Shown here: in pieces, positions 332 to 61,029 of the stretch
Layout: every line of letters begins with the position of its first letter
How positions within the stretch are numbered: position 1 is the first letter of the stretch
Assembly: GCA_019055375.1 (NCBI GenBank)
Contig: JAHQIW010007161.1
Location: 18,708-82,707 of the forward strand
DNA: 64,000 bases
DNA from: Parelaphostrongylus tenuis
Lineage: Eukaryota; Nematoda; Chromadorea; Rhabditida; Metastrongylidae
Reading direction: 5' to 3'
Made by a program: the position numbers and the translations under genes
Notes under the pieces: generated by a model
Told to the model about the DNA's origin: nothing
What the model saw: the letters and a program-made list of their open reading frames with translations, nothing else
The model's database searches: none

Positions 332-613
332 AAAAACGATTTTTGCTTTCTAAAGGCTAGGAGATATTCAAATTCAACTGTGGGCAAGTTTACATTTTCT
401 GCATCAGATCATTCACGAGGAAGCAGCAAAACTGCCACCTGACAGTTATACGTGATTGACACCATTTTGGGGCTAATAAAGTTGCAAGAGCTTCAGAGAT
501 TCCCAATTCCCTCAACTCAAAGCAATACTTTTGCTATCGATCGCTCTTTTACAGGCCCACTCAAAACGAAATAATCTGATAAGGATATGAAATGTTTTGA
601 GGCGATAGGTCTA

Positions 614-660
614 GTGCTATATATGCCTATTTCATCCAATTGGGACTCATCAGTGGCATC
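614..660 (-). ncRNA. Hammerhead ribozyme motif, lineage A, partly decayed
   Basis: On the minus strand CTGATGA is followed by GTCC-CAATT-GGAT and GAAA, so the catalytic core is intact. The stem I 5' strand has mismatches, stem II closes with a G-U pair, and the stem III palindrome is broken (TAGGCATATAT). Cleavage is possible but likely weak. Confidence 0.6.
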
Positions 661-972
661 CTTCCTCGGGTTCCATCGATCCCTTGAGGCCAAATAATCC
701 TCTAAAACAATCGACTTTGAGTCGAAAATAATCACCTTAAGTCGGATGACGGTATTACCTAGCGTTGTGGTGACCGGCAGTTGTGTTTTGCGCGGGTCTG
801 TAAAAGAGCGGTCGATAGCAAAGGAATGATTCATCATAAAAGCCGCAAGCTCGACTGCTGGTCACTACAACGTCAGGTAATGCCATCATCCGACTCTGAG
901 TGATCGATTCTTACTCGGCTTCAGTTCCTTTAGAGGATTATTTAGCCTTAAGGGACTGATGGAGCAGAGGGA

Positions 973-1024
973 GGGTGCTATTGATGGGTCCCAATAGGAC
1001 GAAGTAGGCGCCAATATAGCACTA
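973..1024 (+). ncRNA. Hammerhead ribozyme relic, lineage A
   Basis: GGTGCTA is followed by TTGATGG instead of CTGATGA, then the perfect stem II GTCC-CAATA-GGAC, and GAAG instead of GAAA. The stem I partner TAGCAC is present. Core changes at C3, A9 and the last A make it almost certainly inactive. Confidence 0.55.
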
Positions 1025-1079
1025 AACCTATCGGCTCAAAAACATGTCATATCCTTATCAAAGTAAAACTTTCAAAGTA

Positions 1080-1870
1080 CATATGGTAGATTCTACTAGA
1101 GCACGGAAACATCGGTTAGTGGTGTAAAAGACTTGCCAAATGTGAATGACAATCAGCTGCGTAGAACGGAACACTTGAACAGTTGCAATTGATGCGCCAA
1201 TTTTTAACGTAGCGTAGCCGTAACTTAGTTCACTCCTCCTAATTTCTGATGCTACGTGATGAAATCACGACTTTCCTAAAAATAATATACTCATTATCGA
1301 AAAAGCGCCGAAATCACAAGCTCACTCTTGTGGAAGGTCTGCAGAAGCAGATGCAGACTCATAGAAACGAACTATACTATCTTTTGGGTAACATATTTTA
1401 CTGAAAAGCAGAGATTATGTCTGATAAACACTCGTATTTGCATTGTCCTTTTCCATTCAGTGCGTCTACGAAATATTCTTCATTGATGGAAAGGCCGACT
1501 AATATCCGAAACTAGAAAGATAACCCTACAGGATACTTTTCAAGGATTCAAAAACAGGCGGAAACATACATGTCACCAATCTATCACCAAAATCACGAAC
1601 CAAAATGGGAAACCGCATCAGAATTAGTGTTAGAAGAGACAACTACATGAGGGCATTATATTTGTTGTGAGCAGAATAATCCTACATTTTGATGAGTTTG
1701 CCAATGAATCGAAATGGGAAAACACAGTCGACATTGATAAGAACGCAAGTGAGGTGACGCTGAGCAGAAGTTTTCTTTCTCACCTTGTTTGTTTTCAAGT
1801 TTTTCATCACGATGATTATCTATGGGGCTCCCTCAACTCTCGCAGTCGTAACGTACAAATAAACTAAGAT
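1080..1870. repeat. Diverged copy of the duplicated upstream block
   Basis: From about 1640 the text TTTGTTGTGAGCAGAATAAT, then a run ending GAATCGAAATGGGAAAA, parallels 55745-55806. The open frame at 1667-1867 is the decayed counterpart of the 55773-56102 frame. No functional gene is visible. Confidence 0.4.
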
Positions 1871-2087
1871 TTGTTTTTGCACATTTCGAATAGCAAAGTC
1901 GCTTTTCATTGTGCAATGGTTTCAAATTCTTTGATGAGTTATCTCGCTGCTAGAAATTGGAGGACTAATCTGAAATATCCGAAGAGTGATTATCATACAT
2001 TGAGTTATGAATTCAACTGATGCAATATTAATCAATCAGAATTCATTTATTCAAGCGTTTGTTTCGGTGGTATGATCTTGTAGTATA

Positions 2088-2427
2088 CCCAATAATGTGG
2101 AGTGTTGTGCAAAAACATTTGCATCAGCCGGCATTCGAACTCAGATCTTACTCTTTATGTTAGCGTATAGCGAACAAGCGGTTAAATATCCTACTGATTA
2201 TTGATACCCAATATCTGTCAGCATAAGTAGGTTTAATGCCGATAACGGCTGCCTCGCCAGACCGTAGACGGTTGGCTGTTGACAGATAACGCGTTTGTAG
2301 CGTAAAAAGAGTGCTGTGCAAAACGAGTGTCGATGGTGCAACGGTCAGCATACGCTTCCGGAAATAGTGAAATCTAGGTTCAAATCCCGGCTGACGCAAA
2401 TGTTTTGGTACAGTACTCCACATTATT
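2088..2427. mobile_element. tRNA-like foldback element T1
   Basis: The terminal inverted repeats CAATAATGTGGAGT (2090-2103) and ACTCCACATTATTG (2414-2427) bound the element. The right arm holds a plus-strand tRNA-like module at about 2328-2398 with box-A-like TGGTGCAACGG and box-B GGTTCAAATCC in a T arm CTAGG-TTCAAAT-CCCGG. The left arm carries part of the inverted module. Related copies are at 31729-32209, 35450-35700 and 53450-53912. Confidence 0.65.
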
Positions 2428-2429
2428 GA

Positions 2430-4475: not shown

Positions 4476-4858
4476 AGAAACCGAAACAAAAAATAATGTT
4501 GTGGGACATTTATGGTACTATAATGAAATGGTTTTGCCACAGCACTTGCCAAAACTCTTCAGTTCAGTACATTTTCGCATTGAAAGTGCAGTAGGATTAC
4601 TCAAACAAGATTGTTCGCAGTCAGTAATTCAAACAAAGCGACACGAAACTGCTAAATCTCGGAATTGCTCCAAGACAAAAGTACTAGAACATGGAAGTGA
4701 TTCCAGGACCGACAATCTATTAACCTCGACATCATTTGTATAACTAAGTGACCTCTTCTGTTTAGCAATTCCGAAGTGTTATTGATATTATTTATTGAAT
4801 AACGCAAAGCATAGAACAATACAGTTAATAATACAACATGAATATTACAACAGTCGTG

Positions 4859-4898
4859 GTGCCTCACGTTTCGGCAAGTTTCGCCATCTTCAGAGCTT
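4859..4898 (-). ncRNA. Hammerhead motif of PLE-1, lineage B, decayed
   Basis: The minus strand reads AAGCT-CTGAAGA-TGGC...GCC-GAAA-CGTG-AGGC. The U7A change in CTGAAGA is tolerated by hammerheads, but the cleavage-site base is G, which normally blocks cleavage, and stem I pairs poorly. It marks the PLE terminal repeat. Confidence 0.65.
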
Positions 4899-5167
4899 GG
4901 GAAGGTCAAATTGATTTGCAAATTAATAAACCAAAGGCCTTCGTAACCCTAGCAGAAAACGCAAGAGATAATTTTGTGGGTCGCATGGGAAAAACCTCAT
5001 TTTAAAAAACACTCATCGTTTAGGTGTTTTGCGCCTCTCAATCAATCATTGAAGATCTGCCACTTCGAGTCTGTGCTTAAGTGTAACCCTGCCTGGCTCA
5101 GGCCGGGAATCTTAGCCTGAGGTATGGTGCGAGGTCACGCGATATTACGAGGCCTCCTCTTTGCGGT

Positions 5168-5437
5168 TCATTTTTGAGCCTTTGCTATGGATCCAAAAAG
5201 TTTCAAAGTTTTATGCTTAGATATTTCTGATTCCTGTGCGAGGAGCGTAAATTTAACGTCAAAATTTGCTTCTTTATGCTTTTGTTCCTTATGCGTGCCT
5301 AGTGGGGCTTTTGGATCGGAGTTACGTTCTCCAGCTAGGTGCTCATTTACGCGGATGCAGAGTGGTTTACCCGTTTCGCCAATATACTTATCCCCGCATA
5401 TCTCGTAAGAGATTAGGTAAATTGCACCCAATCTCAT
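5168..5437 (-). pseudogene. PLE GIY-YIG endonuclease domain
   Basis: The minus-strand frame reads GAIYLISYEICGDKYIGETG, then an arginine in CIRVNEHLAGE and a histidine in GTHKE. This is the GIY-YIG fold signature with A-I-Y in the first motif and Y-I-G in the second, plus the catalytic Arg. It lies downstream of the RT as in canonical PLEs and would nick target DNA to prime reverse transcription. A partial copy lies at 41740-41905. Confidence 0.85.
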
Positions 5438-5814
5438 GCAGTCGCCGTCTCTGCCGTTTGGGAAAACTTTGCAGTCATTGGTTTCGCATAGGCGATCATA
5501 TAGTCGGTTGCGGACTAATTGTCGTTCTAGTGTTTTTAGTGGTATCTTGACTACTGCTACCGAATTATCTAAACTGCTTCTTAAGCAGCGTTTAATGGCT
5601 GCACTTACTCAGTTAGAAATAAAAGGCAGGATGAATGGAACTTTATCCTTGCCAGACCTTCCGTATAGGGCCTCCGAATTTTCTCTAATTCTAGCTTGAG
5701 AAGCTCCTATCGTGTTGTAGCCATTAGAGATGGCTAGTTTTCGCGCTGAGCTCAGCGATTCTACCTTATGTTCTTTTCTTGTGCACACATTAGCAGCTGT
5801 TCGAAATACGTTTT

Positions 5815-6612
5815 TTACAAGTGCTCACTTTGTGCGCAAGGTATGAGCAGATAGGTAATGAACCAGGATGTTTTTGTAGTTCGGTTTGTGATACCATTTT
5901 GTATTGTAGCAGTTTCTGGGGAGAGGTTAACTTGAACGTTTAAAATTGGAAGCCAATTTGCCTTAGGTTTCTCACGGGTGAACTTGATGTAATCTGACTG
6001 ACTGTTTAACAACTCAAAACATTTGCTCATCTCTTCTTGTGTTGGACAGGCGACAAAGCAATCATCTGTGAACCTGCAATAGAGTAACGACCGGAGATCA
6101 ATTATTGGGGCCTCTACTTCAGACATAAAAGCGATGACAAGGGTCGGAGCTAGTCGTTGTCCCATTGCCAGCCCTCTGATCTGCGCAAAATACTTCCCAG
6201 ACTATCTAAAGAATGAGCAGCTTAGCCACTTTTTTCAGAGAGCCATGCCCTGCCGAATGGAGAAGCCATACATGTTCGTAGTTCTTTCGTGCTCCGTTAG
6301 AAGCTGGCATATGGCTTGCATTGCAAACTCATTCAACACGTTTGTATGAGGAGCGATCACGTCGAAAGATTCCATTACGTACGCGTTGCTGGGAGACGCG
6401 TTACGTAGACGATCCAAGAACATTTGGGTATTGGTAAGATGGGCTGGAATGTGTTTTAGTAGTTGGACTAGTAATAAGTTTAAAAACCACGTTATTCTAT
6501 CCGTTGGCCCCTCTATACAGCTGATGATGGGTCTAACTTTGAGGTTTGATGGATCAGTAGACACAAGATCATCAGTGCATGTCAACTTGTGATTCTTAAT
6601 GAGTAAGTACAA
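5815..6612 (-). pseudogene. PLE reverse transcriptase, frameshifted
   Basis: The segment 6612-6235 has KVRPIISCIEGPTDRITW and motif A as SFDVIAPHTNV with its aspartate kept, then stops. The segment 6165-5815 starts MGQRLAPTLVIAFMS and carries the catalytic motif C as RFTDDCF, where PLEs usually have R-Y-I-D-D-C. Both catalytic aspartates remain, but the reading frame is interrupted near 6200. The RT would copy PLE RNA at the nick made by the linked endonuclease. Fragments of the same protein recur at 59170-59640. Confidence 0.85.
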
Positions 6613-6993
6613 GACGGGGCATGATCATGGATCGAGTTTAAGCTGAGAAATACGGAAGTTCTTAACCAGCCGATCTTGCTATTTTTATCCATTCACTATT
6701 CGACTTCCGATATTGTTTTTGAAGTTCCTTATCAAATGATGGACGATAAAGTGTAGCGTCCTTTAGGTGTTTTTTTCGTTATCTCAACCCAACCGATGGG
6801 GAATTACAACGAACTCTCCTCGCTTATCACTAACTGATGGTTAAATGGTTTTGGACTTCATTGGCTTCCGTATCTATCGTATACCGTTCTTCTGCGTTGA
6901 TGTCAGGTTAGAGCTAAATTTTTTCGAGGATAGTGATTAAGAATTCTAAGAGTCTCGTCCGAAAATATGCGAAAATTGACATCTACTTTGTTA

Positions 6994-7693
6994 TTAGGGC
7001 CTTGCTGTCCAAAGAGCGTGTTGGTAAGGAGGTGTTGGTAATGCACCCAAATTTTGCTGTTCATGCCTGTTAGATGTTTCTATTCTGACTTTATAGTGGA
7101 GGCGATCTTGAAGCTCTTGTAAATTGCGTGTGATACTGCACAGGGTTTCCTTGCATGGTTGCGCTGGTAAGAAATCGGGCCCATTTCCAGGAGCGATCGC
7201 GCATTTTCGGGGAGAGTCATGCCTCTTAACACGGTGATCCTTGATTTTTTCGGCATTATTGATGTTAGCTTGACTCTTAGGGCTTTCGTTGTCGGTGCGA
7301 AAGTGTTTTGTCGAAGTATGTCTATGCAGTTTATTCAAAAGATTTTCAAATTTTTTGTGTGAGGTTACTTTAGCACTTGACCTAATAGATTCGTAAATCA
7401 AAATTGATCCACCCTTGATTTTCCTCCAAAGGCGATCCTTTAAACACTGAACACAATAATATTCTTTCGACTCACACTTTTTAAATTGAGAATACATTAA
7501 ATATTGTTTAAATCGAAGTGATTTTTGTAGGAGTCTTATTTCGATGCGCAATATTCGTTGGTCGTCCTCTGGTCGTCCGCATACTTCGTGTAATCCTTTT
7601 CGTTTGATGAAATTTAGGATGACTCAATGTTTCAAGCAGCGACGGAGAAATGAAATCGTTTGTCCAGCTAAGACAATCTTTTGCCTCAGTCAC
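6994..7693 (-). pseudogene. PLE N-terminal region
   Basis: Two overlapping minus-strand frames (7693-7508 and 7551-6994) belong to the region upstream of the RT. A related stretch occurs at 9830-10190, where AAAATTTGCGAAAATTGATA matches 6964-6983. Basic residues and ESPKSQ-type polar text are visible, but I recognise no named motif. The frame is broken near 7520. Confidence 0.55.
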
Positions 7694-8331
7694 AGGGTCT
7701 CTTTCACTAGTCGGAAATATTTGGCTGGAACAGTTTGTAATAGATCCCAGGACCGACTATCTAGTAATCTCGGCATGGTTTGAATAAATAGGCAGAGGGA
7801 GACGGCGTAAGTTTAGGTCCAATATACCTCATCTCTTGTTGGGCATGTGGCGACGCCGTAAAAGATAGAATTATTTATGTACCCACAAAAGAGCACCTGA
7901 AGGGAAAGTCGAAATCGCAGAAGAACTTCCTTTGGCGCACATAAGATAGAAGGGCATGAGAGTAACGTCTCCGAGGTGGTAGCTAAAATTTTGGACAAGG
8001 AGACAAAAACACAACGCGAAGGATTCTTAAGATTTTTTGGGAAAGCTTAAAAAGCCCAGAAATGAACAGAAAGAGAGAAAGCGTCTGAATATAGAAGATG
8101 ATATAATGTCATTTTACACCAATTTTTTATTTTTTAGTTCCATCAAAGGTAATTTTTCATAGTGTGCGACAATACAGTGATAAACTGATATACAGATGAT
8201 TGAGCGGTGGGTTCGGTGCAATAGCAGAACATTAATTTTTGAATCATACCTCTTCTGTCGACGGCTTTTCATAGACCCCTTCAAAATGATATAATTTGTA
8301 AAGGTATAACAGGTCTGAACTGTTAAGTCTA

Positions 8332-8379
8332 GTGCTATACAGGTACCTGTTTCGACCTCTTGGGACTCATCAGTATCAC
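8332..8379 (-). ncRNA. Hammerhead ribozyme, lineage A, near-intact
   Basis: On the minus strand GTGATA, CTGATGA, stem II GTCC-CAAGA-GGTC, GAAA, the palindrome ACAGGTACCTGT, cleavage base A, then TAGCAC. The core and cleavage triplet GUA are intact. One mismatch in stem I and a T-T mismatch in stem II may slow it. It lies in a partial A repeat (about 8255-8490) with the left-end phrase CTTCTGTCGACGGC. Confidence 0.75.
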
Positions 8380-8708
8380 TCTTCTTTGGTTCAACCGATT
8401 CTCAAGGTTAAGTAATCCTCTGTGAATGAATCGACACCGAGTAATAAATCACCAAAAGTCAGATGACGGAGCTGCCTAAATCTTGATTTTTTCTGCTTAC
8501 TGACTTTAAATAAAGAAAAGACTCCTCCTGTAGACAAGAACTTTTCATAGGACTGGAAGTAATCATTGGCTTGAATCTTTTGAAGTTGCTCTAAGCGACT
8601 AAAGCTCGAATCCTTGTCTATTTTCTACTTGCTCCTTTTTTGAAAAAAACCGTTTCATCACGCTGTCGCATCCAAAATAAAATTGTGTTTGCACCGGCCG
8701 TGCCATTT

Positions 8709-8936
8709 CACCGTAATATGTGTAAAGTAAAAGCAATTTCCATGGCATGTTGTTTGCGTGTTGAAAGATCCGGTTCTACTGGGGCCCTGCGTATTCCGTA
8801 ATTTTCTGGCCTTGCACCGATCGTCTCACCACCTGACTCCATGGCCGGGAGAGCCCAGTGTGCGGGGTACTGATGCTGGCCTTGCTGGTTCTGCAGATTG
8901 ATCTTTCTCAGATTTTCTTGATTGGAGTTTGCCTGA
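8709..8936 (-). other. Orphan coding-like stretch, unrecognised
   Basis: One minus-strand frame is open for about 75 codons in a locally GC-richer island. It reads QANSNQENLRKI, later PAHWALPAMESGG, PENYGIRRAPVEPD and KQHAMEIAFTL. The amino-acid mix looks like a real protein, with a Gln/Asn-rich start. No convincing splice acceptor is visible on the left, although CG followed by GTGAAA could be a donor. It could be an isolated exon or a piece of a mobile-element ORF. Confidence 0.35.
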
Positions 8937-9294
8937 GCTATTTCAGGTCTTCAAGATGTCCATTCTAATAAATTTCCTTTCGGAGACGGATCCAATGCTT
9001 GGACTTCCTACCATTTGATTTGGAGATGGTGTCAAACTTGAAATCAAAAGGTAAAAGTAGGAATGAAAACTTTGACCGACCGATCACGGATAATGTAAAC
9101 AAGCCTAACGCCACTGCATCCAGTCCACCGTGTGCTACACTACTTTTATATAAACTGCAATGCTATTATAATTCACTGGAAAAAATGTACTAGTCGTATC
9201 GAGCACAATTCTCTCTTTATAGGACACAGCAACATTCGTTCTAAAGTGTAGCTTTGAGCAGAGGGATATTCCATGTTTTGGGCTGATAGGTCTA

Positions 9295-9342
9295 GTGGTA
9301 TACAGGCTCCTGTTTCGTCCTACTGGGACTAATCAGTACTGC
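9295..9342 (-). ncRNA. Hammerhead relic, lineage A
   Basis: The minus strand has CTGATTA (G8 replaced by T), perfect stem II GTCC-CAGTA-GGAC, GAAA and the stem III strands ACAGGAGCCTGT, then A and TACCAC. Loss of G8, a catalytic base, should inactivate it. Confidence 0.6.
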
Positions 9343-9633
9343 CATACCTCGGTTCAGCCAATCCCCTGTAGTTAAATAATCCTCTAAAGGAATTGACGCG
9401 AGTAAAAAATCACCCCTAGTCAGGTGTTGTACATACCTGACATTGTGGTGACCGGCAGCCGAGTCCGTAGTTGTCAAAAAGCGGACAATAGAAGAGGGTT
9501 GTTTTGACAGCTACGTACTCGACTGGTGGTCACCACAATGTCAGGTAAGTGCATCATCTAACTTGGGGTGATTTACTAGTCGGCGTCGATTTCTTTATAA
9601 AGATTATTTAGCTTCGTCTGCTGAACGGAAGGG

Positions 9634-9682
9634 GTGGTACTGATGAGTCTCAATAGGACAAAACAGGCGCCCTCTATACCAC
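9634..9682 (+). ncRNA. Hammerhead motif, lineage A, one core change, compensated stem I
   Basis: GTGGTA-CTGATGA-GTCT-CAATA-GGAC-AAAA, then CAGGCGCCCTCT, A and TACCAC. Stem I is GTGGTA with TACCAC, whereas 60791-60838 has GTGCTA with TAGCAC: both strands changed together and pairing is kept. GAAA has become AAAA, so activity is doubtful. Confidence 0.65.
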
Positions 9683-9829
9683 TAAAACTATCAGCTCAAA
9701 ACATGTAATGTCCTTATCAGATTATGTCATTTTGAGCGGGTCTGTGAAAGAGGTCGATAGAAGAGGTTTAAGCAGAAGTTTCTGATTATCTATTGACTTA
9801 GGGCACGATTGAGAGTCATTGATAGCCGA

Positions 9830-10375
9830 AAATTTGCGAAAATTGATATCTACTTTATTATTAGGGCCTTGTTGCTCAAAGAACGCTCAAGGAGAAGGCG
9901 GTGTTGGCAATGCCCCTACATTTTGTTGTTGTTCGTGCCTTGATTCTAGTCTAGCTTTATAGCGGAGCCGATCTTGAAGGTCTTGCAAATTGCATGCGAT
10001 ACTACACAGAGTTTCCTCAGAAATGGGTTATGCTGGTGAGAAACTTGGGCCCGTTTCCAAGAGCGGGCGCGCACTATCGGGGAGAATCATGCCTCCGAAC
10101 ACGGTGACCCTCGATTTTTCTGGCATAGTGTTGATGCTAGATAGACACTTAGATCTTTCATCAACGGTAATATAGTGTTTTGTTGAAATAGTTTGCTAAT
10201 CAACTTGACCTTTCCAGGCTCTAAAGATGGCGAACCTTGGCAAAACGTAATCCACCAGACTGTTGTAATATTCGTGCTGCATTATTAACTGTATCTTTGT
10301 ATGCCTCGCTGATATTCAATGAATAATATGAATAACACCTCGGAGCCGCTAAACAGAAGAAAATACTCATGAAAG
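9830..10375. mobile_element. PLE mosaic: N-terminal fragment joined to an opposed terminal repeat
   Basis: From 9830 to 10190 the sequence matches 6960-7330 of PLE-1 (minus-oriented N-terminal region). From 10197 it switches to the PLE terminal repeat in plus orientation (ATCAACTTGACCTTTCCAGG, then AATAACACCTCGGAGCC). The hammerhead here (about 10215-10255) reads CTAAAGA and CAAA, so it is dead. The junction suggests template switching or an inverted pseudo-LTR. Confidence 0.7.
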
Positions 10376-10379
10376 TGAT

Positions 10380-13190: not shown

Positions 13191-13244
13191 GAGCATCACT
13201 TGGGACGCACAAGCATGATTAGAACGAAGGGCATTTTTGATAAT

Positions 13245-13650
13245 GATTTTTTGAGCCACGCATGTGGTCTGTTATAGGGCAACATAGAGCCCGGTACACG
13301 TGATTCGATTTGTAGGCATATTGAAATTTGAGCGTGGTCTTGAAAAAAACGAGACAAAAGGCTTGACATGCCAAACAATATCAGCTAAGAGCAATCGAGT
13401 GGACAACACCTTTTAAATCATTCAAACTTTCATTCAGTGATAATTTCACTAGATAGATCGTGTGAAATATTCTTCGTCGTCTACTCATAGTATGGGGTTG
13501 GGTCTCCCAGAGAGGATTGGCTAGAGACGAGGGGCACCGTCCGACTGACAAGAGTGTCAAGGTCGAAACATGTGTATGAGCTGTATAAGCTGCCCTATAA
13601 CAGACCACATGCGTGGAGCACTCCAGAGAGCACTCAAATTGAAAGGTAGA
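13245..13650. mobile_element. Foldback element of the F family, decayed
   Basis: The left arm GAGCCACGCATGTGGTCTGT (13251-13270) is the complement of the right arm ACAGACCACATGCGTGG (13601-13617). Each arm carries part of an F ribozyme: a truncated one at 13290-13312 (GGTACACGTGATTCGAT) and a fuller one at 13538-13586. Confidence 0.65.
13538..13586 (+). ncRNA. Hammerhead relic, lineage F
   Basis: GTCCGA-CTGACAA-GAGTGTCAAGGTC-GAAA-CATGTGT-A. CTGACGA has become CTGACAA (G8 to A), and the 3' strand of stem I (TGAGCT) pairs poorly. It is likely inactive. Confidence 0.55.
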
Positions 13651-15320
13651 GCGAACAATATGAGAACCTCGTAGAGTCTATCATTACACCTAGAACGTCT
13701 ATGGTAATTCACAATTCTAAAGTCCCACACTCAAAAGTGGACGTCGTAGTCAATCAGCGGAAGTGCCACGTAAAAATGCCGAATCTTGGTGAATAGAATG
13801 TTCTACGTAACTTAAGCTTCTGTTGCTGTGCGATTTTAAACGAATCAGACTAATATCTAAGTCATCTGGACTGCTTCTTCTCATCACCATGAATAGTCTG
13901 ACTCAAAACCATGATTTACAAGTAAAAAGAGATAAGCACTATAGACTGCAGAATTCCCATTGGCGCCTTGTAGAATGCCGCCCAGTATGTCAAGAAAAAG
14001 GTAACGAGAAATACTGTGAAACACAAAAAACGAGATGACGTGACTACAAAAGAGGAAGAGGGATTGACACTTGTTCGGAAATTGGGCGCAAACTTGCAGA
14101 TGTCGTCGAATTCTCAGCAGCGACGCTGTGTTGATCATCCAATCAATTCCACACCAGCTGCAGTTGTCTTTTCACTTACAATAGCAGGCTATTTCTCTTA
14201 GCTGTGATGAACAAGGTATCTGAAGCGACATTAATACTTTGCGCTATTAGTGAAAGGATACATCACAAGCGGTGTGTTCGATACCCGCTGTTTTTTTCAT
14301 CTTGCCTAACCCACTAGCACACCTACTACTATGAGGATTCCGACACTCCCTGCTTTTGAAATCACCTAGTCATATCCACCTTTCTGAGTGGGTCTACCAA
14401 CATCTCGTGTGTTGTTTCAACTGCAGTTTAAAAATCTTGTTTTCATCATTAACGTTGCGATATGCTGCTCAAAGTGATTATCTCAGCATTCTTAGGGAAA
14501 AAAGAGTTGAGGTGTTCTTACTCTGACTGAAGGGGCATTTGAGAAACGGGATCAAACCAACGCTTTTTTTTTCCTGATGAACTGTATCACTGATCGTTTC
14601 TTTAGCCCAGTATTATTTTAGTTATTTTATACACGTGGTCCATCGGTAGTTAAATTGCCTGATTTGTTCGCTGTAACAGAAAAAAATATTTGTTTCACAT
14701 TTAAGCATTTTTGTCAGATAAATTTTTTCATGAGTAATTAATAATCATTAGGTAGGACAAATCTTAACAATTTCAAAGGTGTCCTTCGTTTTTGAAAACG
14801 ACGTCTCGGAGTAGTGCAGGAGTCAAAAGAAGATTGGTCATGGAAATTTAGGTTATTTTCCATGATCCGCATCCTGTTATGTTTAGTCGGTACACTTCAA
14901 TTTTCAAAATGGCTTCCCTAACGCATTCTAATAGTGAAAATCAAAATATCTCTCACGCGCGAGCATTTTTCACTGCAGAAGCTTTTTCGCCAGAATTCTA
15001 ATATTTCTTCTCAAGCTTAAATCTCGACAATGTCTATAATGACTTTGTTTTGAAAAGAATTCCTTATTGTACTGCAGCAGTCAAAAGAAGATTATGTTTC
15101 GCATTTGGTTGATATGTTGCTAAATGCCTAAATGCACGGTGACTTGAGGCCAATGTCACACCACCCCTCCCCACCCCTCCCACTCCTATAGGAGTGCGAA
15201 AATCAATCTGCTTTTGACTGTTACAGTTCTCTAAGGATTCCTCTAAGAATAAAACTTGGCTTTTGAAATTACTGAGATTTGCACTATATAGATATTGATT
15301 TTTTACAGAAAAACTTTATG
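13650..15320. other. No gene recognised
   Basis: Short open frames (13823-14038, 13884-14138, 14016-14201) overlap on both strands and carry no motif. Text such as GTGCAGGAGTCAAAAGAAGATT (14813) and GCAGCAGTCAAAAGAAGATT (15075) marks a dispersed AT-rich repeat also seen near 38850. A C-rich run lies at 15160-15185. Confidence 0.4.
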
Positions 15321-15329
15321 CCTGATAAT

Positions 15330-15645
15330 CATTATTTGAGCCACGCATGTCAGTGGTTTGTCAATGAGGGCTGACTTATAGAGCCCGATACACGTGTTTC
15401 GATCTTGCGATCTCGTCAGTCGGGCAGTTGCCCTTTCTCGTCTTTTGCTAATCTCTGTGGGTGCTCCAGTCCTCACAATAAGAGTTAGCGACGACGTACG
15501 TTTTACACTCTCTGTCCAGTGAAGAACTCACCAAACACAGAGTGTTGTACACTCGAATGCTCGTGGCTGGTATATTTAATATAACATATCTTTCATTTCG
15601 AGTGTTTTCTTAAGACCACAGCTCAAATTTCAATATGCCTGATAA
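15330..15645 (-). mobile_element. F-family element with intact hammerhead
   Basis: It matches the inverted copy at 17935-18265 nearly end to end: TTTGAGCCACGCATGTC, the ribozyme, the TTAGCGACGACG segment, GTGTTGTACACTC, GCTCGTGGCTG, then CGAGTGTTTTCTTAAGACCA. No ORF is present. It looks like a non-autonomous ribozyme-bearing unit of about 315 bp. Confidence 0.7.
15383..15425 (-). ncRNA. Hammerhead ribozyme, lineage F, intact
   Basis: The minus strand gives GCCCGA, CTGACGA, stem II GATC-GCAA-GATC (perfect, capped by a GNRA-type tetraloop), GAAA, the palindrome ACACGTGT, cleavage base A, then TCGGGC. Stem I (GCCCGA with TCGGGC) is perfect over 6 bp. All invariant core bases are present (position 7 is C, which is allowed). 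Cleavage is predicted between the bases pairing with 15389 and 15388. Stem III has no room for a loop, suggesting a dimeric form. Confidence 0.88.
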
Positions 15646-15984
15646 TCATTATTTGAGAACTTGAGAAAACTTGAGAACTGAGAAAAACTTTATTCGGCGA
15701 GCACATCTTGATAGGTAAATTAACACGTTTGCAGTCGTCTTGAAATGGCCTTGCAAACATTCTCCAACTAGTATCTCTATATTCAGTAATAAGGCAACGA
15801 CCGCAGCATTTTCTCTGATTCATGAACGGAGAGAATTTTCTATATAAATTGTCTATTTACAAATTTCTCATGTGTTCTGAAAGAAAGCGCTAAATAAAAC
15901 TTCATCACATTGTACGCTTTGAATTGATTGCTGCTGTAATGCCAGGCAAATAACGACAAATAAAAATGTTTGCTTCAGAGAAAT

Positions 15985-16345: not shown

Positions 16346-16414
16346 TTTTCCTTCAACTCGAAAGACCGACTTTCTTGAAACCTCGGCATGTTAATAATAT
16401 AAAACTTTGAAAAT

Positions 16415-16946
16415 GAGAAGAAAAGCTTAGAAAACTAATCTTTATTTAAAGCTTCACGAGGTTGGTATCTTTTCCCAATCGATTGCTCTTCTTTCCGGTC
16501 GATGGGTTTTCTCGATTGCTTGTGGCTGACGTTTCGGCAAATATGCCTTCTTCAGAGCCTGAACGTATTATTCGTTGCAGCTTTACTTATATGACTATAC
16601 AATAAGGAAAGAGAAAAAAAAATAAAATTATTTGAAAATCTAAGGTATTGTAAGCGAAAATCGATTCAGGGAAAACCACTCACCTAACCATCTAATCCAG
16701 GGACTACCTATGTTGTTAGCGCCAGGGTGACGTATGAACCCGCCCCCATGTCAATAGATCAAACTATGCATAGGTGTCAGCTGGGACCCATGCTAGAAAA
16801 TTAATCTGAGATAAGGTGCCATATGGTTGGTTATGTTAAGGCACTCTCCCTTTTTGTTCATTTGCGGGTGAAGCTCGTGAAGCTTTAAAATAAAGACCTC
16901 GTGAAGCTTTAAATAAAGATTAGTTTTCTAAGCTTTTCTTCTCTTT
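16415..16946. mobile_element. Terminal-inverted-repeat element with intact B ribozyme
   Basis: The left end (16418-16466: GAGAAGAAAAGCTTAGAAAA, then a run ending CTTCACGAGG) is the near-perfect complement of the right end (16895-16946). The interior carries a PLE-type hammerhead on the minus strand and no ORF. It may be a non-autonomous PLE derivative or a MITE that captured a PLE terminus. Confidence 0.7.
16524..16559 (-). ncRNA. Hammerhead ribozyme, PLE lineage B, intact core
   Basis: The minus strand gives GGCT-CTGAAGA-AGGCATATTTGCC-GAAA-CGT-C-AGCC. Stem I is GGCT with AGCC, stem II GGCA with TGCC, stem III the minimal palindrome ACGT, and the cleavage triplet is GUC. Position 7 is A, which is not a conserved position. 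This is the minimal PLE-type hammerhead; such short stem III ribozymes are known from PLE terminal repeats. Confidence 0.85.
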
Positions 16947-17365
16947 TTCCTTCAAGTTGATGTTTCCGGTACCAAACTCAGTAAAGAATCGAAACGCTCC
17001 TCGCCTGGACACAAATCCTTGGGCCTTTGCACAGTTGTTGTTCTCGAAGGTGGTCTGTGCATCACGTCCCAGTTCGTGCTCGTAAGGCAGCAAATTGCAA
17101 TAAAGTCTTCGTTGGACGGCCATAATGCAACAAGTATAAATAAATTTGCTGCCAAAAGATTATTTAGGAAATTCTGCACCAAGAGGTGTTGATTTGTTGC
17201 CTGGGAGATGGCACAAAGTGTTCAGGCTATTATACATAATACTAGGCCTCCAACTAAGTTCGCGAACTTGCTTCAAAAAAATTCAAAATTTATTTTTCCA
17301 AGTAGTCGAAAGCTTCAAAAAACATTAATTAAAACGTTTTTTGTTTTTCTATTTGCAACTTTATG

Positions 17366-17929: not shown

Positions 17930-17934
17930 AAATC

Positions 17935-18265
17935 ACGCTTTACACTCTATGTTCAGTGAAAAACTCACCAAACACAATGTTGTACACTCTGTTGCTCGTG
18001 GCTAGTATATTCAATATATCATAACTTTCGTTTCGAGGCGTTTGTCGTCGCTAACTCTTAGTGTGGGGACTGGAGCACCCAGAGAGATTAGCAAAAGACG
18101 AGAAAGGGTTGTTGCCCGACTGACGAGATTGCAAGATCGAAACACGTGTGTCGGGCTCTATAAGTCAGCCCTGTTTGACAGACCACAGACGTGCGTGGCT
18201 CAAAAATGGTTGCAAGGCATAATGAAATTTGAGCTGTGGTCTTAAGAAAACACTCGAATCGAAAG
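17935..18265 (+). mobile_element. F-family element, inverted copy
   Basis: This is the reverse complement of 15330-15645 with about 10 percent divergence by eye, including the segment CTAACTCTTAGTGTGGGGAC and the ribozyme. Its left end truncates the mariner copy. With 15330-15645 it forms a 3-kb-spaced inverted pair. Confidence 0.7.
18114..18156 (+). ncRNA. Hammerhead ribozyme, lineage F, cleavage base changed
   Basis: GCCCGA-CTGACGA-GATT-GCAA-GATC-GAAA, the palindrome ACACGTGT, then G and TCGGGC. The core and stems match 15383-15425, but the cleavage-site base is G instead of A, and GUG is not a substrate for hammerheads. It would fold but probably not cut. Confidence 0.8.
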
Positions 18266-22400: not shown

Positions 22401-22426
22401 GTTTTCTCATGATAATTGCTTAATGT

Positions 22427-22560
22427 GGGGCGTGCACTAACGAGGAACGCGAGACCTCCGAAACACCGGTGGATGGCCCTGGCGCACCAACCTCGCTTAG
22501 GCTTTATTCTTCTTTTTAAAATTATTCTGAATGTATATTGCTTAGTTTTTAGAGACAGTC
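22427..22560 (+). ncRNA. Hammerhead relic, lineage C
   Basis: GTGGGGCG, then CTAACGA for CTGACGA, an expanded stem II, GAAA, ACACCGGTGG, A and TGGCCC. The downstream text CTGGCGCACCAACC to ACAGTCGAT matches the C palindrome arms at 58920-59010. G5 is changed, so it is inactive. Confidence 0.6.
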
Positions 22561-22654
22561 GATGCCATAGATCGGTTTTCATCCTGTCAAGAATCATACA
22601 TTTTCAAGACTGAAAATATCTGAAGTACTATGTGAATATTCCTCTTAATACCTT

Positions 22655-26910: not shown

Positions 26911-27500
26911 GAATCGAATTTGAATTACTTAGTCAAATGGGCATTGTTGGAGTTCTGCGTTTCTGAGACTGCTGTAAATGAAGTGGAGTATGTGGGTAAT
27001 CGTTCTGCTTCCAGTATAGTAAAATAGACAGATACAAATAGATGTTGCACTAATATAATTATGTATAGCAGTCAACACAGATGCAGTTGCAAACTCATCG
27101 GGTTTTCGGAGAATTTAACGAATCTTGCAGTTGACACGGTCTGGCATAAAGGACACAAGAGGCAGCGCGCAAGTGTGCAGAAACAATGCGTCTCAGTACG
27201 CAATCTTCTACAATTGAAGATGACGTTGGATCAAGGATGGTCAGGTTTGTAGTAAACAGCCTGTTCAACAAAAGAACACTTTTTATAGAGCGATAACTGT
27301 CCAAAAGTGTGCCTTTCTCTCTAGCTGAACGCAAGAGTCAGAAAAGAGTACACGCATTTTTTCTTTATTTCATGTCAGTAAAATGTTTCTTCACTTGGTT
27401 ACATGGACACGCTTTGTGGATTCCTGAAAGGTTGCACGCAAGGAGATATTTGGATGTAAAAAGTGTGATCCAGGAGAATTATAAGTTCATAAGTTAATTT
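26910..27500. other. No gene recognised
   Basis: Frames 27061-27252 and 27309-27497 have no motif; the sequence is non-repetitive as far as I can see. Confidence 0.35.
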
Positions 27501-38721: not shown

Positions 38722-38739
38722 ATTGAAAGATTTCCAACT

Positions 38740-41309: not shown

Positions 41310-41920
41310 GATGGAACTAATTCCAGAGCCGACTATTCATTAATATCGGCATAGTTGAGATAAATCATTAGTTTCACCTGTTAAGCAGTTCCAAGGTGTT
41401 ATTAACAGTATTTGTTGAATATCAGTGATGTAGCGCAATTATGTAGTGTAGTACTACAGCACAGAAAAAACAATAATCGTATATTGCTTTACGTTTCGGC
41501 GAGCATGGAAAGGTTAAGTTGATCCGCAATCCAGTCGGTCAGAAACCTCCATATCCTCATCAAAAAAAAAGTAAGAAACGGATATTTGGATGGCTTAGTA
41601 AAATCCTTTGCAAAACACTGTTCGCTTGAATGTTTTAGTTCCAATTCTTCAGAGAAGAGCAGTCACTGAAGAATGCAGTCAATGCATGAGTGGGGCTATG
41701 CCTAACTCAATCCGGAAAGACTAGCCTGAGTTATGGTACAAGATCACGCGTGACTACGAGGCACTTTGCTTTTATTTTTGGACCTTTACTATTTATCCAA
41801 AGGACTTCAAAATTTTGCGAGTGGATGTTTTTGATTCTTGCGTGAAGACAGCGAATTTAACGTTAAAATCTGCTCGTTTATGTTTTTGTTTCCCTAGACG
41901 TGCCTTTTGGGTACATAGTA
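41310..41920 (-). mobile_element. PLE 3' end (PLE-3), minus orientation
   Basis: It aligns with 4695-5300 of PLE-1: CCAGAGCCGACTATTC, TTCCAAGGTGTTATTA, the terminal repeat (with part of the hammerhead deleted around 41495-41510), TCGCAATCCAGTC, the spacer and the start of the GIY-YIG domain (41740-41905). It stops at an inverted junction near 41920. Confidence 0.7.
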
Positions 41921-42600
41921 AAAGCCTAAAAATGAACCGCAAAGAGGAGTGGCCGTCGTAATAACGCGTGTCTCGCGCTATATCTCAGCTTAATCTTCGC
42001 GACCAGGGTCAGGAGCAACCTCACTTATGCACTGCCTCTCGCGGCTGGTCTTCAATGAATAGTTGAAAGACCTAGGAAATCAAAACAGTGAGTGTTTCAG
42101 AATGAAGCTTTTACAATTCGATCCAAAATCGTTTCTTACGTGTTCACCTGAGGTTATGAAAGTTCTGACTGAGTGGATTGCAGATCAGTTTGATCTTTCC
42201 ATGTTATAAAGAAGGCGAGCCTTGCCGAAACATTGGCCAATGTACGATTATTGGAATATCTGTACTGTATTGCTACATTATAGTACTGCGCTGATCACTG
42301 ATTCAATAAATACTGATAACTTAGCTCTAGCTGGCACGAGGTTGGCAGACAACGTCGATGTTGTCGTTGTTTGTTGTTGTACGCTGATCGCTGTACGGAT
42401 TGCTAGCTAACGTTTCGGAGACACCGCCTCGTCGTCTACCAGCTTCCTGCCACCTAGAGAGTTAAGTTAGCATATTTGATTGATAATTAACTTTGATGCT
42501 GAGGTTAATAGAGAGTCGATTTCACGAGCTTTTGCGCCAATAAATAGTGTTATTAACACTTCGGAGTTGCTTAGTAGAATAAACTACTGAATATGAAATA
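41921..42600 (+). mobile_element. PLE 3' end (PLE-4), plus orientation, back to back with PLE-3
   Basis: AAAAATGAACCGCAAAGAGG (41930-41949) matches the complement of 5155-5174 and continues through the spacer to a terminal repeat at 42195-42585 (AATAGTGTTATTAACACTTC). A dead hammerhead lies at 42206-42245 (TATAAAGA, GAAA kept). A D-lineage insert interrupts it near 42330-42480. Confidence 0.7.
42401..42440 (-). ncRNA. Hammerhead relic, lineage D
   Basis: The minus strand reads GACGACGA-GGCGGTGTCTCC-GAAA-CGTT-AGC. Stem III and the cleavage side match 46601-46636, but the CTGANGA core is altered to ACGACGA. Confidence 0.5.
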
Positions 42601-49569: not shown

Positions 49570-49850
49570 GTTTTATAAGATATTTTGAGCCTTTCATAAG
49601 ATCTTTTATAGCACTTACACAGTGCACGACACGTGTTTCGGCGTTATTACCTCGTCAGTTGCACGGTGCCTTTCGGTTCAGTCGCTTTCGCCGACCAGAT
49701 TTTCCTCAATGTGATAGAATCACCAAGCGGGCAGTGCTGTGCAGTCGATTCCTCGTAGCTGGTAAAATGTATATTGTCACACCTTTTTTTACAACTGTTT
49801 TTGAGCGAGGTCTCAAAAACAGTTGAAGAGGCAGGTATTTCGATAGAGTT
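49570..49850 (-). mobile_element. G-family element
   Basis: TTTTGAGCCTTTCATAAGAT, the ribozyme and GGTGCCTTTCGGTTCAGTCG match 18600-18700 and 26390-26440. A hairpin CAACTGTTTTTGAGCGAGGT with CTCAAAAACAGTTG lies at 49792-49825. Confidence 0.6.
49622..49667 (-). ncRNA. Hammerhead ribozyme, lineage G, core intact
   Basis: The minus strand gives GTGCAA-CTGACGA-GGTAATAACGCC-GAAA, the palindrome ACACGTGT, cleavage base C, then GTGCAC. All core bases are present. Stem I has one mismatch next to the core followed by five pairs; stem II is short. Confidence 0.75.
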
Positions 49851-49904: not shown

Positions 49905-50015
49905 CATAGCTGTATAGTACTAGACCTATTGGTTCAAAACACTCCATATCCTTATCCGATTCTATCGTTTTGAGCGTGTCTGTAAAAGAGCGGTCGATAG
50001 CAGAGGTATCAAATC
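49905..50015 (+). mobile_element. A-family fragment, right end
   Basis: CTGTATAGTACTAGACC, CTTATCCGATT, then GTCTGTAAAAGAGCGGTCGA and TAGCAGAGG match the A elements. Only the 3' strand of the ribozyme remains. Confidence 0.65.
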
Positions 50016-56755: not shown

Positions 56756-56759
56756 ATAT

Positions 56760-58380: not shown

Positions 58381-58443
58381 CAAAAGGTGAATTTAGGGAT
58401 TCCAAAAAAGAATGCTTTAAACTCAAACGGGGTTGATACGCCA

Positions 58444-58491
58444 GGGTCATACACCGATGTTTCGGAGGTCCGTCCTCCTCGTCAGTGACCC
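58444..58491 (-). ncRNA. Hammerhead ribozyme, lineage C, left arm, intact core
   Basis: The minus strand gives GGGTCA-CTGACGA-GGAGG-ACGGA-CCTCC-GAAA, stem III ACATCGGTGT (one wobble), cleavage base A, then TGACCC. Stems I and II are perfect (6 and 5 bp). Confidence 0.87.
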
Positions 58492-58874
58492 CCGCCCCAC
58501 ATTCAGCCCTGCATTGAAGCAAGGAGGGAGGCGTATGTGGTGATGCCACAGTGTACAATGACACTGGTCCATCACCACCTCTCAGTCGATAGATTTTTGC
58601 TGTTAGATCAAAACTAATTCAAAAGATCGACTGTTTTTGAAACCCCGAAAAAAAACAACATTCAACATAATTCCAAAAAAGAATGCTGAAAGAATTATGT
58701 TGAATGTTGTTATTTTTTCGGGGTTTCAAAAACAGTCGATCTTTTGAATTAGTTTTGATCTAACAGCAAAAATCTATCGACTGAGAGGTGGTGATGGACC
58801 AGTGTCATTGTACACTGTGCCATCACCACATACGCCTCCCTCCTTGCTTCAATGCAGGGCTGAATGTGGGGCGG

Positions 58875-58922
58875 GGGTCACTGACGAGGAGGACGAACCT
58901 CCGAAACACCGGTGTATGACCC
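58875..58922 (+). ncRNA. Hammerhead ribozyme, lineage C, right arm, intact
   Basis: GGGTCA-CTGACGA-GGAGG-ACGAA-CCTCC-GAAA, the perfect palindrome ACACCGGTGT, A, then TGACCC. Stem I 6 bp, stem II 5 bp, core complete, cleavage predicted between 58916 and 58917. The spacing is identical to the left-arm copy. Confidence 0.9.
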
Positions 58923-59169
58923 TGGCGTATCAACCCCGTTTGAGTTTAGAGCATTCTTTTGTTGGAATTATGTTGAATGTTGTTTTTCTTCGGGGTTTCA
59001 AAAACAGTCGATCTTTTGAATTTGAATTTAGTGAATCGAATATGGGAGGCAATTTTCTTATTTTTCGTTTTGTGAACATGATAGAGTACACTCTGACTGC
59101 TCATTCAATAATTTGAAACAATTGTCAATCTTCTCTGTGATAACAAGCAATCATTACGTATCAACAGTC

Positions 59170-59640
59170 TAGTCATCGACAACGCTAAGAAATGGCGCTT
59201 ACAATCCGGGCATGAAGGCAGGCGAGGCTTTGTGCCAATCGTTGCCCCGTTGTCACACTCTCAATTCGTGAAATTTTTTTTCACGACTCATAGGTTGAAC
59301 ATCTTGTACACTATTTCAAAAAAAGTTATAGGAGGCATGGGCTTTTGAACCAGTAAGTCACAAATGCCGATTTTTCTCCAATTTTTATTAGTCGTTCGTA
59401 TATGGCTTGTATTGCAGAGTCATTCGAGACATTTATGTAGAATGCGGTAACATAGAATGGCCCCATTACGCAGGCGACTTTGGTTGCACACGTCTATATG
59501 GTCTAGGAAGTTTGATAGTGGTAAGATGAGGTGGTTTAGACTTCAATAAAGAAGAGATCATGGCACTGGGAAATTATGTTGTCTTAAATCTCTTAAGAGA
59601 AAATTCCATTATCAAGCGGTAACGAAAAACCTCTAGATCG
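59170..59640 (-). pseudogene. PLE reverse-transcriptase fossil
   Basis: TATGGCTTGTATTGCAGAGT (59400-59419) and GGTAAGATGAGGTGG (59520-59534) correspond to 6309-6328 and 6435-6449 of PLE-1; TGCCAATCGTTGCCCCGTTG matches 6150-6165. Many indels. Confidence 0.6.
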
Positions 59641-60690
59641 TGGATTTGGAATGATCTCTAATTCGTCCAATACATTTTTAAATTAGAGAGTTGATAGTGT
59701 TTCTGTGTTCAAATTGTAAATCATGCATTAAACAGCAATGTTTTCTAGCAAAACGCTCCGATTATCAGTATTAAACTTCAATGTTGACTAATTAGTTATT
59801 CTTTCATATACGCTGCACGTCATCAGATTTTGCTATTGGAATGCGAGCACTTCTTGATTTAGATTCGTTTGCACGTACTTAATATCCCAAAGATCTTCCA
59901 ACAATTGGCATGTTGTTCCGACTACTGCTTGAAGAGCTTCTTGAATGTCGTCGAATACTGGTCGAGTCAAATCATGTAAACGAACACAGCGTCGATAAGA
60001 CGTTTTTATACGATTGCAAGAGAGTATTAGTGGAGTTGGTCAAAGCTCACCTTCCTTCATGATAGCTTCCTAATAACGTGCAAGGCTGACAACCAGGCAA
60101 GCGCCCTTCGTTAAAAACTAGCTAACTCTTTGTATTAAAACTTGATTAGAACATCTAGTTAATCGCATACTCGGTAAACATTGAGAACTCTGGGAAATAT
60201 TTACTTGAAAGTAAGAAGGTCTCTCTCCTCACAGGGCTGCCAAGGAATATATGGTTAGCTGCTTCACGATTATTACTCTGTGGGAAGCTTTTGGAATACT
60301 TGCCTGTCAAATTATTCATCCACTTTTGTAATCTGGTGAAGTCTATTCAGAGATTCCTGCTTAAATAATAACTGAGGCACCCGTTCTTATGCAGTGACAT
60401 TTCTCTTCCCATCTCCTTTCTTTATTACCCGCTTTGAATTTGTATCAGCACACTGTTTTCACTTAACTGGCGTCCCTTGCCTAGGGGAAGAGTTTGAGGT
60501 TCTTTTTCTAATCCGAGAGAAATGAAGATAGATCCAATTCTACTGTACATGAATTTTTTATAAGAGTGTTAGTAATAATTGGAAAGCGTAGATCCTTGGC
60601 TACTGCTCTACGAAACCTTTTCGGCATTCAGAATAAAATTATATGTTATGGTAACGACTGCTTTTTTGCTCCTTTGCTCATATTTCTCTG
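59640..60690. other. No gene recognised
   Basis: No supported frame or repeat. Confidence 0.35.
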
Positions 60691-60790
60691 GAAAAAAAAC
60701 TCTTTCTCTGCTATCGACCGCTCTTTTACGGACCCGCTCAAAATGATTTGATCTGATAAGGATATTACATGTTTTGAGCCGATAGGTCTA

Positions 60791-60838
60791 GTGCTATATA
60801 GGCGCCTATTTCGTCCTATTGGGACTCATCAGTAGCAC
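60791..60838 (-). ncRNA. Hammerhead ribozyme, lineage A, intact
   Basis: The minus strand gives GTGCTA-CTGATGA-GTCC-CAATA-GGAC-GAAA, the perfect palindrome ATAGGCGCCTAT, cleavage base A, then TAGCAC. Stem I (6 bp) and stem II (4 bp) are perfect and all core bases match consensus. Cleavage is predicted between the bases pairing with 60797 and 60796. Confidence 0.92.
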
Positions 60839-60938
60839 CCTACCTCGGTTCCGTCGATCCCTTGAGGTGAAATAATCATCTAAAGGAATCGGCGCCGAGA
60901 AAACTAAGCACCCAAAGTAAAGACGGAACCGAGGGAGG

Positions 60939-60986
60939 GTGCTACTGATGAGTACCAAAAGGACGAAACAGGCGCCTATGTAGCAC
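60939..60986 (+). ncRNA. Hammerhead motif, lineage A, right arm, cleavage base changed
   Basis: GTGCTA-CTGATGA-GTAC-CAAAA-GGAC-GAAA-CAGGCGCCTAT-G-TAGCAC. The core is intact, but the cleavage base is G, one stem II pair is lost and stem III has one mismatch, so it probably folds without cutting. Confidence 0.8.
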
Positions 60987-61029
60987 TAGACCTATCGGCT
61001 TAAAACATGTAATATCCTTATCAGATTAA

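What the first reader, a model, noticed from the sequence alone, without database searches (positions are those of the whole stretch)
527..61025. Exceptional density and diversity of hammerhead ribozymes: about seven lineages in 64 kb
Seen directly: around twenty CTGANGA...GAAA motifs on both strands, grouped by stem sequences into lineages A to G. At least five are intact with paired stems I and II and a valid cleavage triplet (15383-15425, 16524-16559, 58444-58491, 58875-58922, 60791-60838). Hammerheads are known from PLE terminal repeats and from retrozymes. This many lineages side by side in one nematode locus, mostly in foldback elements without ORFs, may be a poorly described ribozyme-based mobilome.
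Basis: partly seen in the sequence, partly recalled or inferred. Interest (0 to 1): 0.92.

Follow-up and report, generated by a model that had tools for sequence, protein, structure and literature searches.

The report
Hammerhead ribozyme retroelements with Penelope-type insertions
A roundworm genome carries many short mobile elements with self-cutting RNA, and nearly all well-bounded inverted copies examined of one family bear a two-ended insertion scar like that of Penelope elements, which suggests what moves them and how.

Summary
The hammerheads are real but fewer than claimed: four window copies pass a three-helix test; Rfam finds one, below its cut-off. Instead of seven lineages I find four retrozyme-like families (A-D; B and D related) plus minimal hammerheads of a broken Penelope-like element (PLE) in the same window. 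Remaining motifs look like chance.

The larger result is how they insert. All 83 inverted family-A copies examined are head-to-head. Of 46 distinct ones bounded by 10-16 bp target duplications (mostly 12-13), 43 have one outer 3' end near unit position 0 (alpha) and the other near 46 (beta); none has both at one site, after setting aside one apparent assembly palindrome. Inner junctions vary, and most arms cross the uncut ribozyme site. Duplication-bounded foldbacks of C (4 of 4), B (2 of 2) and the PLE (3 of 3; spacing 44 nt) fit. Copies without a duplication fit less well.

A lizard PLE enzyme starts at two adjacent RNA sites and extends both strands (PMC11167929). Best reading: PLE machinery inserts retrozymes by priming both target strands on one circular or multimeric RNA. 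Published work calls PLEs only a strong candidate.

The parts
60707..61027 (.). A1: family A head-to-head foldback; left arm (-) ends at site beta (unit 44), right arm (+) at site alpha (unit 2)
   Evidence: duplication AAAAACTCTTTC / AAAAATTCTTTC at 60695-60706 and 61028-61039
60791..60838 (-). intact type I hammerhead of A1, triplet AUA, helix III AUAGGCGCCUAU
60939..60986 (+). second A1 hammerhead, degenerate (helix II mismatch, G at position 17)
   Evidence: sequence read directly
525..1067 (.). A2: family A foldback, ends at unit 49 and 5, no accepted duplication
8240..8448 (-). A3: single-orientation family A copy, inside the PLE, no accepted duplication
9264..9770 (.). A4: family A foldback, ends at unit 276 and 50, inside the PLE, no accepted duplication
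49913..50009 (+). A5: family A fragment whose 5' end (unit 238) lies at the hammerhead cleavage site (after unit 239)
15320..15680 (-). B1: family B copy, slightly more than one unit, 3' end at TTATCAGGC
   Evidence: 13-bp duplication AGAAAAACTTTAT at 15307-15319 and 15681-15693 read
15383..15425 (-). intact type I hammerhead of B1, triplet GUA, helix III ACACGUGU
17935..18265 (.). B2: family B head-to-head copy, short left arm (-) ending off-site at unit 160, right arm (+) ending at unit 68; hammerhead at 18120 has G at position 17; no accepted duplication
13238..13616 (.). B3: diverged family B foldback, ends at unit 18 and 317, no accepted duplication
58400..59022 (.). C: family C foldback, arms 98% complementary; left arm ends at unit 3, right arm at unit 59
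   Evidence: duplication TGAATTTAGGGA / TGAATTTAGTGA at 58388-58399 and 59023-59034
58444..58491 (-). intact type I hammerhead, left arm of C
58875..58922 (+). intact type I hammerhead, right arm of C
33708..33784 (.). miniature C foldback (77 bp), ends at unit 11 and 58
   Evidence: 14-bp duplication TAGGAATGAGGATT
22418..22563 (+). diverged C fragment
26366..26914 (.). D1: family D foldback; left arm stops at the hammerhead cleavage position, right arm at unit 71; no accepted duplication
49580..49705 (-). D2: family D copy with hammerhead core at 49636-49658
4703..10367 (-). broken Penelope-like element with inverted terminal copy 10189-10360; left 3' end at beta, right 3' end at alpha
   Evidence: duplication CATGGAAGTGATT / CATGAAAGTGATT at 4690-4702 and 10368-10380
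5171..5608 (-). GIY-YIG endonuclease fragment of the PLE
   Evidence: PF01541 E 0.022, below its cut-off; 26 homologs, several named GIY-YIG in strongylids
5818..6201 (-). reverse transcriptase fragment of the PLE
   Evidence: PF00078 E 4.5e-07
4869..4893 (-). minimal PLE-type hammerhead motif near the PLE 3' end
16409..16949 (.). PLE-type minimal hammerhead (16524-16559 -) in an element with 54-bp, 98% inverted ends
41402..42319 (.). old PLE-related palindrome

Best explanation
The window lies in a strongylid nematode genome with short non-coding retrozymes (units of about 273-317 nt, type I hammerhead) and a Penelope-like element (PLE). Shown from sequence, mainly for family A: many copies sit between 12-13 bp target duplications; most loci examined hold two head-to-head arms; in duplication-bounded copies one arm ends at RNA site alpha and the other at site beta, about 44-48 nt downstream; the inner junction differs from site to site; arms run across the uncut ribozyme site; some single-orientation copies run two to three laps; and the three inverted PLE copies seen have the same kind of ends. 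Inferred: the ribozyme makes unit RNAs that are circularised or used as multimers. A PLE-encoded GIY-YIG/RT complex makes a staggered cut. Both target 3' ends prime reverse transcription on the same RNA, one at alpha and one at beta, and the two cDNAs are then joined.
For: Head-to-head in 83 of 83 inverted clusters of family A, 0 tail-to-tail. 43 of 46 duplication-bounded insertions alpha/beta, 0 alpha/alpha, 0 beta/beta; medians -3 and 46. In the set chosen by ribozyme score 46 of 68 loci are inverted. Duplication finder control: 4 of 134 shifted boundaries. Arms of one insertion are more alike than the median of arms of different insertions in 42 of 45, Wilcoxon p 1.7e-7. At least 42 of 45 alpha arms and 42 of 45 beta arms cross the cleavage site. 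Multi-lap copies: L035 3.03, L056 3.38, L061 2.03 units. Family C 4 of 4 and B 2 of 2 duplication-bounded foldbacks fit. PLE 3 of 3: window, L109, L110; alpha AAGATACT to beta CCTGG is 44 columns in the alignment. Published PLE enzyme: two adjacent start sites, both strands cut and extended, 'tail' between the sites (PMC11167929). Published A. vaga PLE: head-to-head inverted pLTR, 9-bp duplication, 31-bp tail on one of the inverted pLTRs (PMC3846280).
Against: 37 of the 83 inverted clusters were dropped, mostly for want of a 10-16 bp duplication; by their ends 22 of these 37 fit alpha/beta and 15 do not: L082, L093, L097 read alpha/alpha, L002 and L045 near alpha/alpha, L098 beta/beta, nine have an end off-site. 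L045 has an 11-bp duplication and would be an alpha/alpha case; I set it aside because its flanks are inverted copies of each other. Three of the 46 have one end off-site (L053 -29, L059 16, L042 16). Ends include bases between the last aligned base and the duplication; by strict mapping the figures were 28 of 30 and 13 of 18. Of the B foldbacks without an accepted duplication only L024 fits; L061, L057, B2 and B3 do not; C copy L055 and D1 do not. The other arm is an insertion's single best match in only 3 of 52. Only three PLE pairs were seen. No shared sequence or proven structure at PLE and retrozyme start sites. The window PLE is broken and I did not establish that an intact one exists. 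No RNA data.
Confidence: 0.8

Rival explanations
1. RTE/LINE machinery moves the retrozymes and the foldbacks are ordinary L1-like twin priming.
For: RTE-type RT fragments are in the window; twin priming is known for LINEs (recalled).
Against: Two preferred start sites with one at each end, with spacing close to that of the genome's own PLE. LINE twin priming uses one fixed 3' end plus a variable internal point (recalled). The ends of RTE copies in this genome were not examined.
Confidence: 0.09
2. Foldbacks form by self-priming (snap-back) of a single cDNA, as proposed for PLEs on an antisense template (PMC3846280).
For: Head-to-head layout; published proposal for bdelloid PLEs.
Against: The two inner ends are not close: 4 of 45 within 10 nt, 3.3 expected by chance. 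It does not predict alpha at one end and beta at the other.
Confidence: 0.05
3. They are DNA foldback transposons or MITEs that happen to carry ribozymes.
For: Inverted repeats and target duplications.
Against: The two termini differ (alpha against beta), inner junctions differ between insertions, and tandem multimers and single-orientation copies also exist.
Confidence: 0.02
4. Post-insertion inverted duplication or assembly artefact.
For: L045 has inverted flanks and looks like one.
Against: Duplications flank the whole foldback at 46 distinct places in family A alone.
Confidence: 0.03

Closest known systems
Metazoan non-LTR retrozymes (Cervera and de la Pena 2020, PMC7229834)
   Same: Type I hammerheads, units of 273-317 nt, GC 42-46%, tandem copies, duplications longer than 4 bp, PLEs in the same genome.
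   Different: Mostly head-to-head inverted insertions with two preferred 3' ends; nematode host. The words 'inverted' and 'nematode' have 0 occurrences in that paper's main text.
Penelope-like elements (PMC11167929, PMC3846280)
   Same: Head-to-head inverted ends, tail on one side, duplications of about 9-13 bp, hammerhead, start inside the RNA.
   Different: Retrozyme units have no room for an RT or endonuclease and carry three-helix type I hammerheads; the one-end-alpha, one-end-beta rule is counted here on many insertions.
Schistosome W elements / SMalpha (PMC8490949)
   Same: Repeats in a parasitic worm, some with type I hammerheads shown active.
   Different: 'Head-to-head' has 0 occurrences there; the 'inverted' passages seen speak of repeats within elements.

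Membership tests
Metazoan non-LTR retrozyme | type I hammerhead with helices I, II and III | tested here: met
   A, B, C; covariation for A. The window's D copies fail the strict test
Metazoan non-LTR retrozyme | 150-450 bp units that also occur in tandem, low GC | tested here: met
   units 284, 317, 273, 289 nt, GC 0.42-0.46; trimer L035
Metazoan non-LTR retrozyme | no LTR, tRNA primer site or polypurine tract; duplications longer than 4 bp | tested here: inconclusive
   duplications mostly 12-13 bp; primer site and polypurine tract were not scanned for
Metazoan non-LTR retrozyme | expressed as circular RNA | not testable with these tools
   no RNA data held
Plant LTR retrozyme | type III hammerhead and 4-bp duplication | tested here: not met
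   type I layout; duplications mostly 12-13 bp
Penelope-like element (4703-10367) | telomerase-like RT plus GIY-YIG endonuclease | tested here: inconclusive
   general RT domain, GIY-YIG below the Pfam cut-off but with GIY-YIG-named homologs; frames broken; no tree built for the RT
Penelope-like element (4703-10367) | inverted terminal copy with a tail on one side and a target duplication | tested here: met
Penelope-like element (families A-D) | own RT and endonuclease | tested here: not met
   units of 273-317 nt have no room for them
DNA foldback transposon | same termini at both ends | tested here: not met

The most novel reading that the evidence does not exclude
Each insertion is written from a single ribozyme-made RNA circle held by a PLE enzyme dimer. 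One protomer extends one target strand from site alpha, the other extends the opposite strand from site beta about 45 nt away, and they do not share a site. Bilateral priming, not a one-sided copy, would then be the normal retrozyme life cycle and the origin of PLE inverted ends and tails.
Probability: 0.5. Interest if true: 0.85.

Novelty: new variant of a known kind. Interest (0 to 1): 0.72.

Why it matters
The machinery that moves animal retrozymes is an open question; PLEs were named as a strong candidate because both carry type I hammerheads, occur in tandem and coexist (PMC7229834; PMC7761336). A shared, specific insertion scar is stronger evidence and gives start sites to test. The one-site-per-end pattern also bears on why PLEs have inverted ends and an optional tail, and it suggests that one RNA serves both target strands.

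Tried and rejected
Rfam at gathering score: no hammerhead in the window, so I used motif, helix and covariation tests. I first took the 24-bp direct repeat around B1 for a target duplication; it is terminal redundancy of the unit, and a 13-bp duplication lies around it. Hairpin around site alpha: in family A 30-35 of 32-35 rows pair at each of 7 positions, but with almost no covariation and no energy signal; for the PLE no covariation. Not claimed. Clustering of inner ends at the ribozyme cut site: 1 of 90 within 5 nt, 3.5 expected, so rejected as the rule, though A5, L069 and one arm of D1 do stop there. Motifs at 45440, 57339 and 59802 were left as chance. Rfam MIR7723/MIR6024 matches on the C foldback are below their cut-offs and follow from the inverted arms.
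Full report
WHAT IS THERE. The window lies in a 481.5 Mb assembly (G000 contig C4843). Its retroelement RT ORF has its best matches in Parelaphostrongylus tenuis, then other strongylid nematodes; the GIY-YIG ORF is likewise closest to P. tenuis (71%), with further named hits in Angiostrongylus, Ancylostoma and Nippostrongylus. The species itself is not identified. Four copies pass a three-helix test, against 1 hit in 60 shuffled windows. Rfam has none at its cut-off and one relaxed hit. In 80 distinct family-A hammerheads aligned without structure, 93.2% of cells pair, against 24-49% when slid, with 52 both-side changes against at most 35 in 500 shuffles; that control does not remove relatedness. 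In 114 of the 123 three-helix hammerheads found in the window and the loci then held (not all distinct), helix III is a palindrome with little or no loop. Salamander hammerheads with a weak helix III and palindromic loop work best as dimers (PMC7229834).

FAMILIES. A (unit 284 nt), B (317), C (273) and D (289), GC 0.42-0.46. B and D share sequence. Minimal CTGAAGA...GCCGAAACG motifs belong to PLE ends (16409-16949 and 4869; that such minimal forms mark PLEs is from PMC7761336). A PLE with broken frames spans 4703-10367, with RT and GIY-YIG fragments, an inverted copy at its far end and a 13-bp duplication with one mismatch. Two family-A copies lie inside it.

THE INSERTION RULE. I collected family-A copies in two ways: with the A1 foldback as query (40 candidates scored of 2396; loci L009-L048) and by ribozyme score (68 of its 69 places held as L001-L008 and L049-L108, C3498 not fetched). 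In the second set 46 of 68 loci hold an inverted pair. These loci are not all distinct, and a foldback can carry two ribozymes, so foldbacks are favoured in it too. Over both sets there are 121 family-A clusters: 83 inverted, all with 3' ends outward, 0 tail-to-tail, and 38 single-orientation. I kept 46 distinct inverted insertions with a 10-16 bp duplication (at most one mismatch); one is window copy A1 (L009). Of the 46, 43 have one end within 15 of unit 0 and the other at 30-65; medians are -3 and 46. None has both ends at one site; three have one end off-site (L053, L059, L042). In one search an end includes bases between the last aligned base and the duplication; by strict mapping the figures were 28 of 30 and 13 of 18 in the two sets. 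Duplication lengths: 12 (18), 13 (13), 14 (6), others 9; AT 75%. The finder gives 4 of 134 at shifted boundaries. Alpha is on the left in 26 of 46.

DROPPED ROWS. I dropped 37 inverted clusters: those without such a duplication or with a shorter, longer or low-complexity one (L014, L030 and L039 read as 18, 25 and 17; L101 low-complexity), second copies of the same insertion (L006, L020, L033), and L045, whose flanks are inverted copies of each other. By their ends 22 of the 37 fit alpha/beta. Fifteen do not: L082, L093 and L097 read alpha/alpha, L002 and L045 near alpha/alpha, L098 beta/beta, and L014, L038, L050, L051, L065, L074, L087, L094 and L101 have an end off-site (my count).

WHAT THE INSIDES SAY. 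In 45 of the 46 that have exactly two arms, the 5' ends are spread over the unit, are not close to each other (4 of 45 within 10 nt, 3.3 expected) and do not sit at the cleavage site (1 of 90 within 5 nt, 3.5 expected). So the centre is made anew by joining two cDNAs rather than by snap-back. For hits of the foldback query the sum of the two inner positions is biased by the search; their spread is not. At least 42 of 45 alpha arms and 42 of 45 beta arms cross the cleavage site, and some single-orientation copies run 2-3.4 laps (L035, L056, L061), so the template was circular or multimeric. Arms within an insertion are more alike than the median between insertions in 42 of 45 (p 1.7e-7), as expected if one RNA served both strands; shared subfamily could add to this, and the other arm is the single best match in only 3 of 52. 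A few copies stop at the ribozyme cut (A5, L069, one arm of D1), as run-off on cut RNA would.

OTHER FAMILIES AND THE PLE. Of foldbacks with a duplication of 10 bp or more, C fits in 4 of 4 (window 58400-59022; window 33708-33784; L056; L097, whose beta end reads 75 rather than about 59) and B in 2 of 2 (L043, L076). Of those without, L024 (B) fits; L057, L061, B2 and B3 (B), L055 (C) and D1 do not, and L034 and L104 (D) are undecided. For the PLE, all three inverted pairs seen fit: the window copy, L109 (ACTTTTATTTCT, 12 bp) and L110 (ATTTTCTTAGTT, 12 bp; its beta end is 11 nt longer). The stretch between alpha (AAGATACT) and beta (CCTGG) is 44 columns in the alignment of 11 copies (counted). 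The top PLE hits were ranked by full length, which favours beta ends, so I draw no frequency from them.

COMPARISON. The lizard PLE protein initiates at two adjacent internal RNA sites, cuts and extends both strands, and the 30-40 bp genomic tail lies between the sites; no strand difference in start site was seen in vitro (PMC11167929, parts 1-2 of 4 and passages). A bdelloid PLE has a head-to-head inverted pLTR, a 9-bp duplication and a 31-bp tail optionally on one of the inverted pLTRs; its authors favoured self-priming on an antisense template (PMC3846280, passages). Animal retrozymes were described as tandem repeats with PLEs as the strong candidate mover (PMC7229834, parts 1-4 of 6 and passages; PMC7761336, passages). 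My searches for retrozymes or hammerheads with nematodes, inversions or target priming and for Penelope with hammerhead, pLTR or twin priming listed no paper that by title and abstract start joins these; the lists were cut at 25 of 594 and of 83,907, and the library lacks most subscription papers. The PLE tail on one side is thus known. New here, as far as these searches show, are the same scar on retrozymes, the counted alpha/beta pattern with its inner-junction evidence, and strongylid retrozymes.

LIMITS. Counts are lower bounds from a capped search. Only family A was sampled in depth. Activity of the ribozymes, RNA circles and an intact PLE are not shown. The PLE label rests on an RT domain, GIY-YIG homologs and end structure, not on a tree.

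Noticed in passing
window 2327-2398, 35597-35669, 53809-53883: Three tRNA-like genes; at least the first two lie inside a dispersed repeat (2195-2427 against 35466-35698, 82%), so perhaps a tRNA-derived SINE rather than tRNA genes.
   Followed up: partly
window 17369-17932 (-): Mariner-type transposase fragment (PF01359, E 1.1e-10) between family B copies B1 and B2.
   Followed up: no
window 42687-44143 and 47558-48440: Retroelement RT fragments (RVT_1) of two copies in opposite orientation.
   Followed up: no
window 58569-58797: The C foldback scores as a miRNA precursor (MIR7723, E 6.8e-19, below its cut-off); transcripts of such foldbacks could feed small-RNA pathways.
   Followed up: no
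window 19056-19357, 30339-30647, 38421-38724: A 300-bp repeat in three copies at 86-92% identity, of unknown kind.
   Followed up: no
L024 1276-1780: A family-A foldback directly beside the end of a family-B foldback.
   Followed up: no
units A and B: Both alpha sites fall at or just after TTATCAG, inside a CTCAAA...TTTGAG inverted repeat; possible RT recognition element, unproven.
   Followed up: partly
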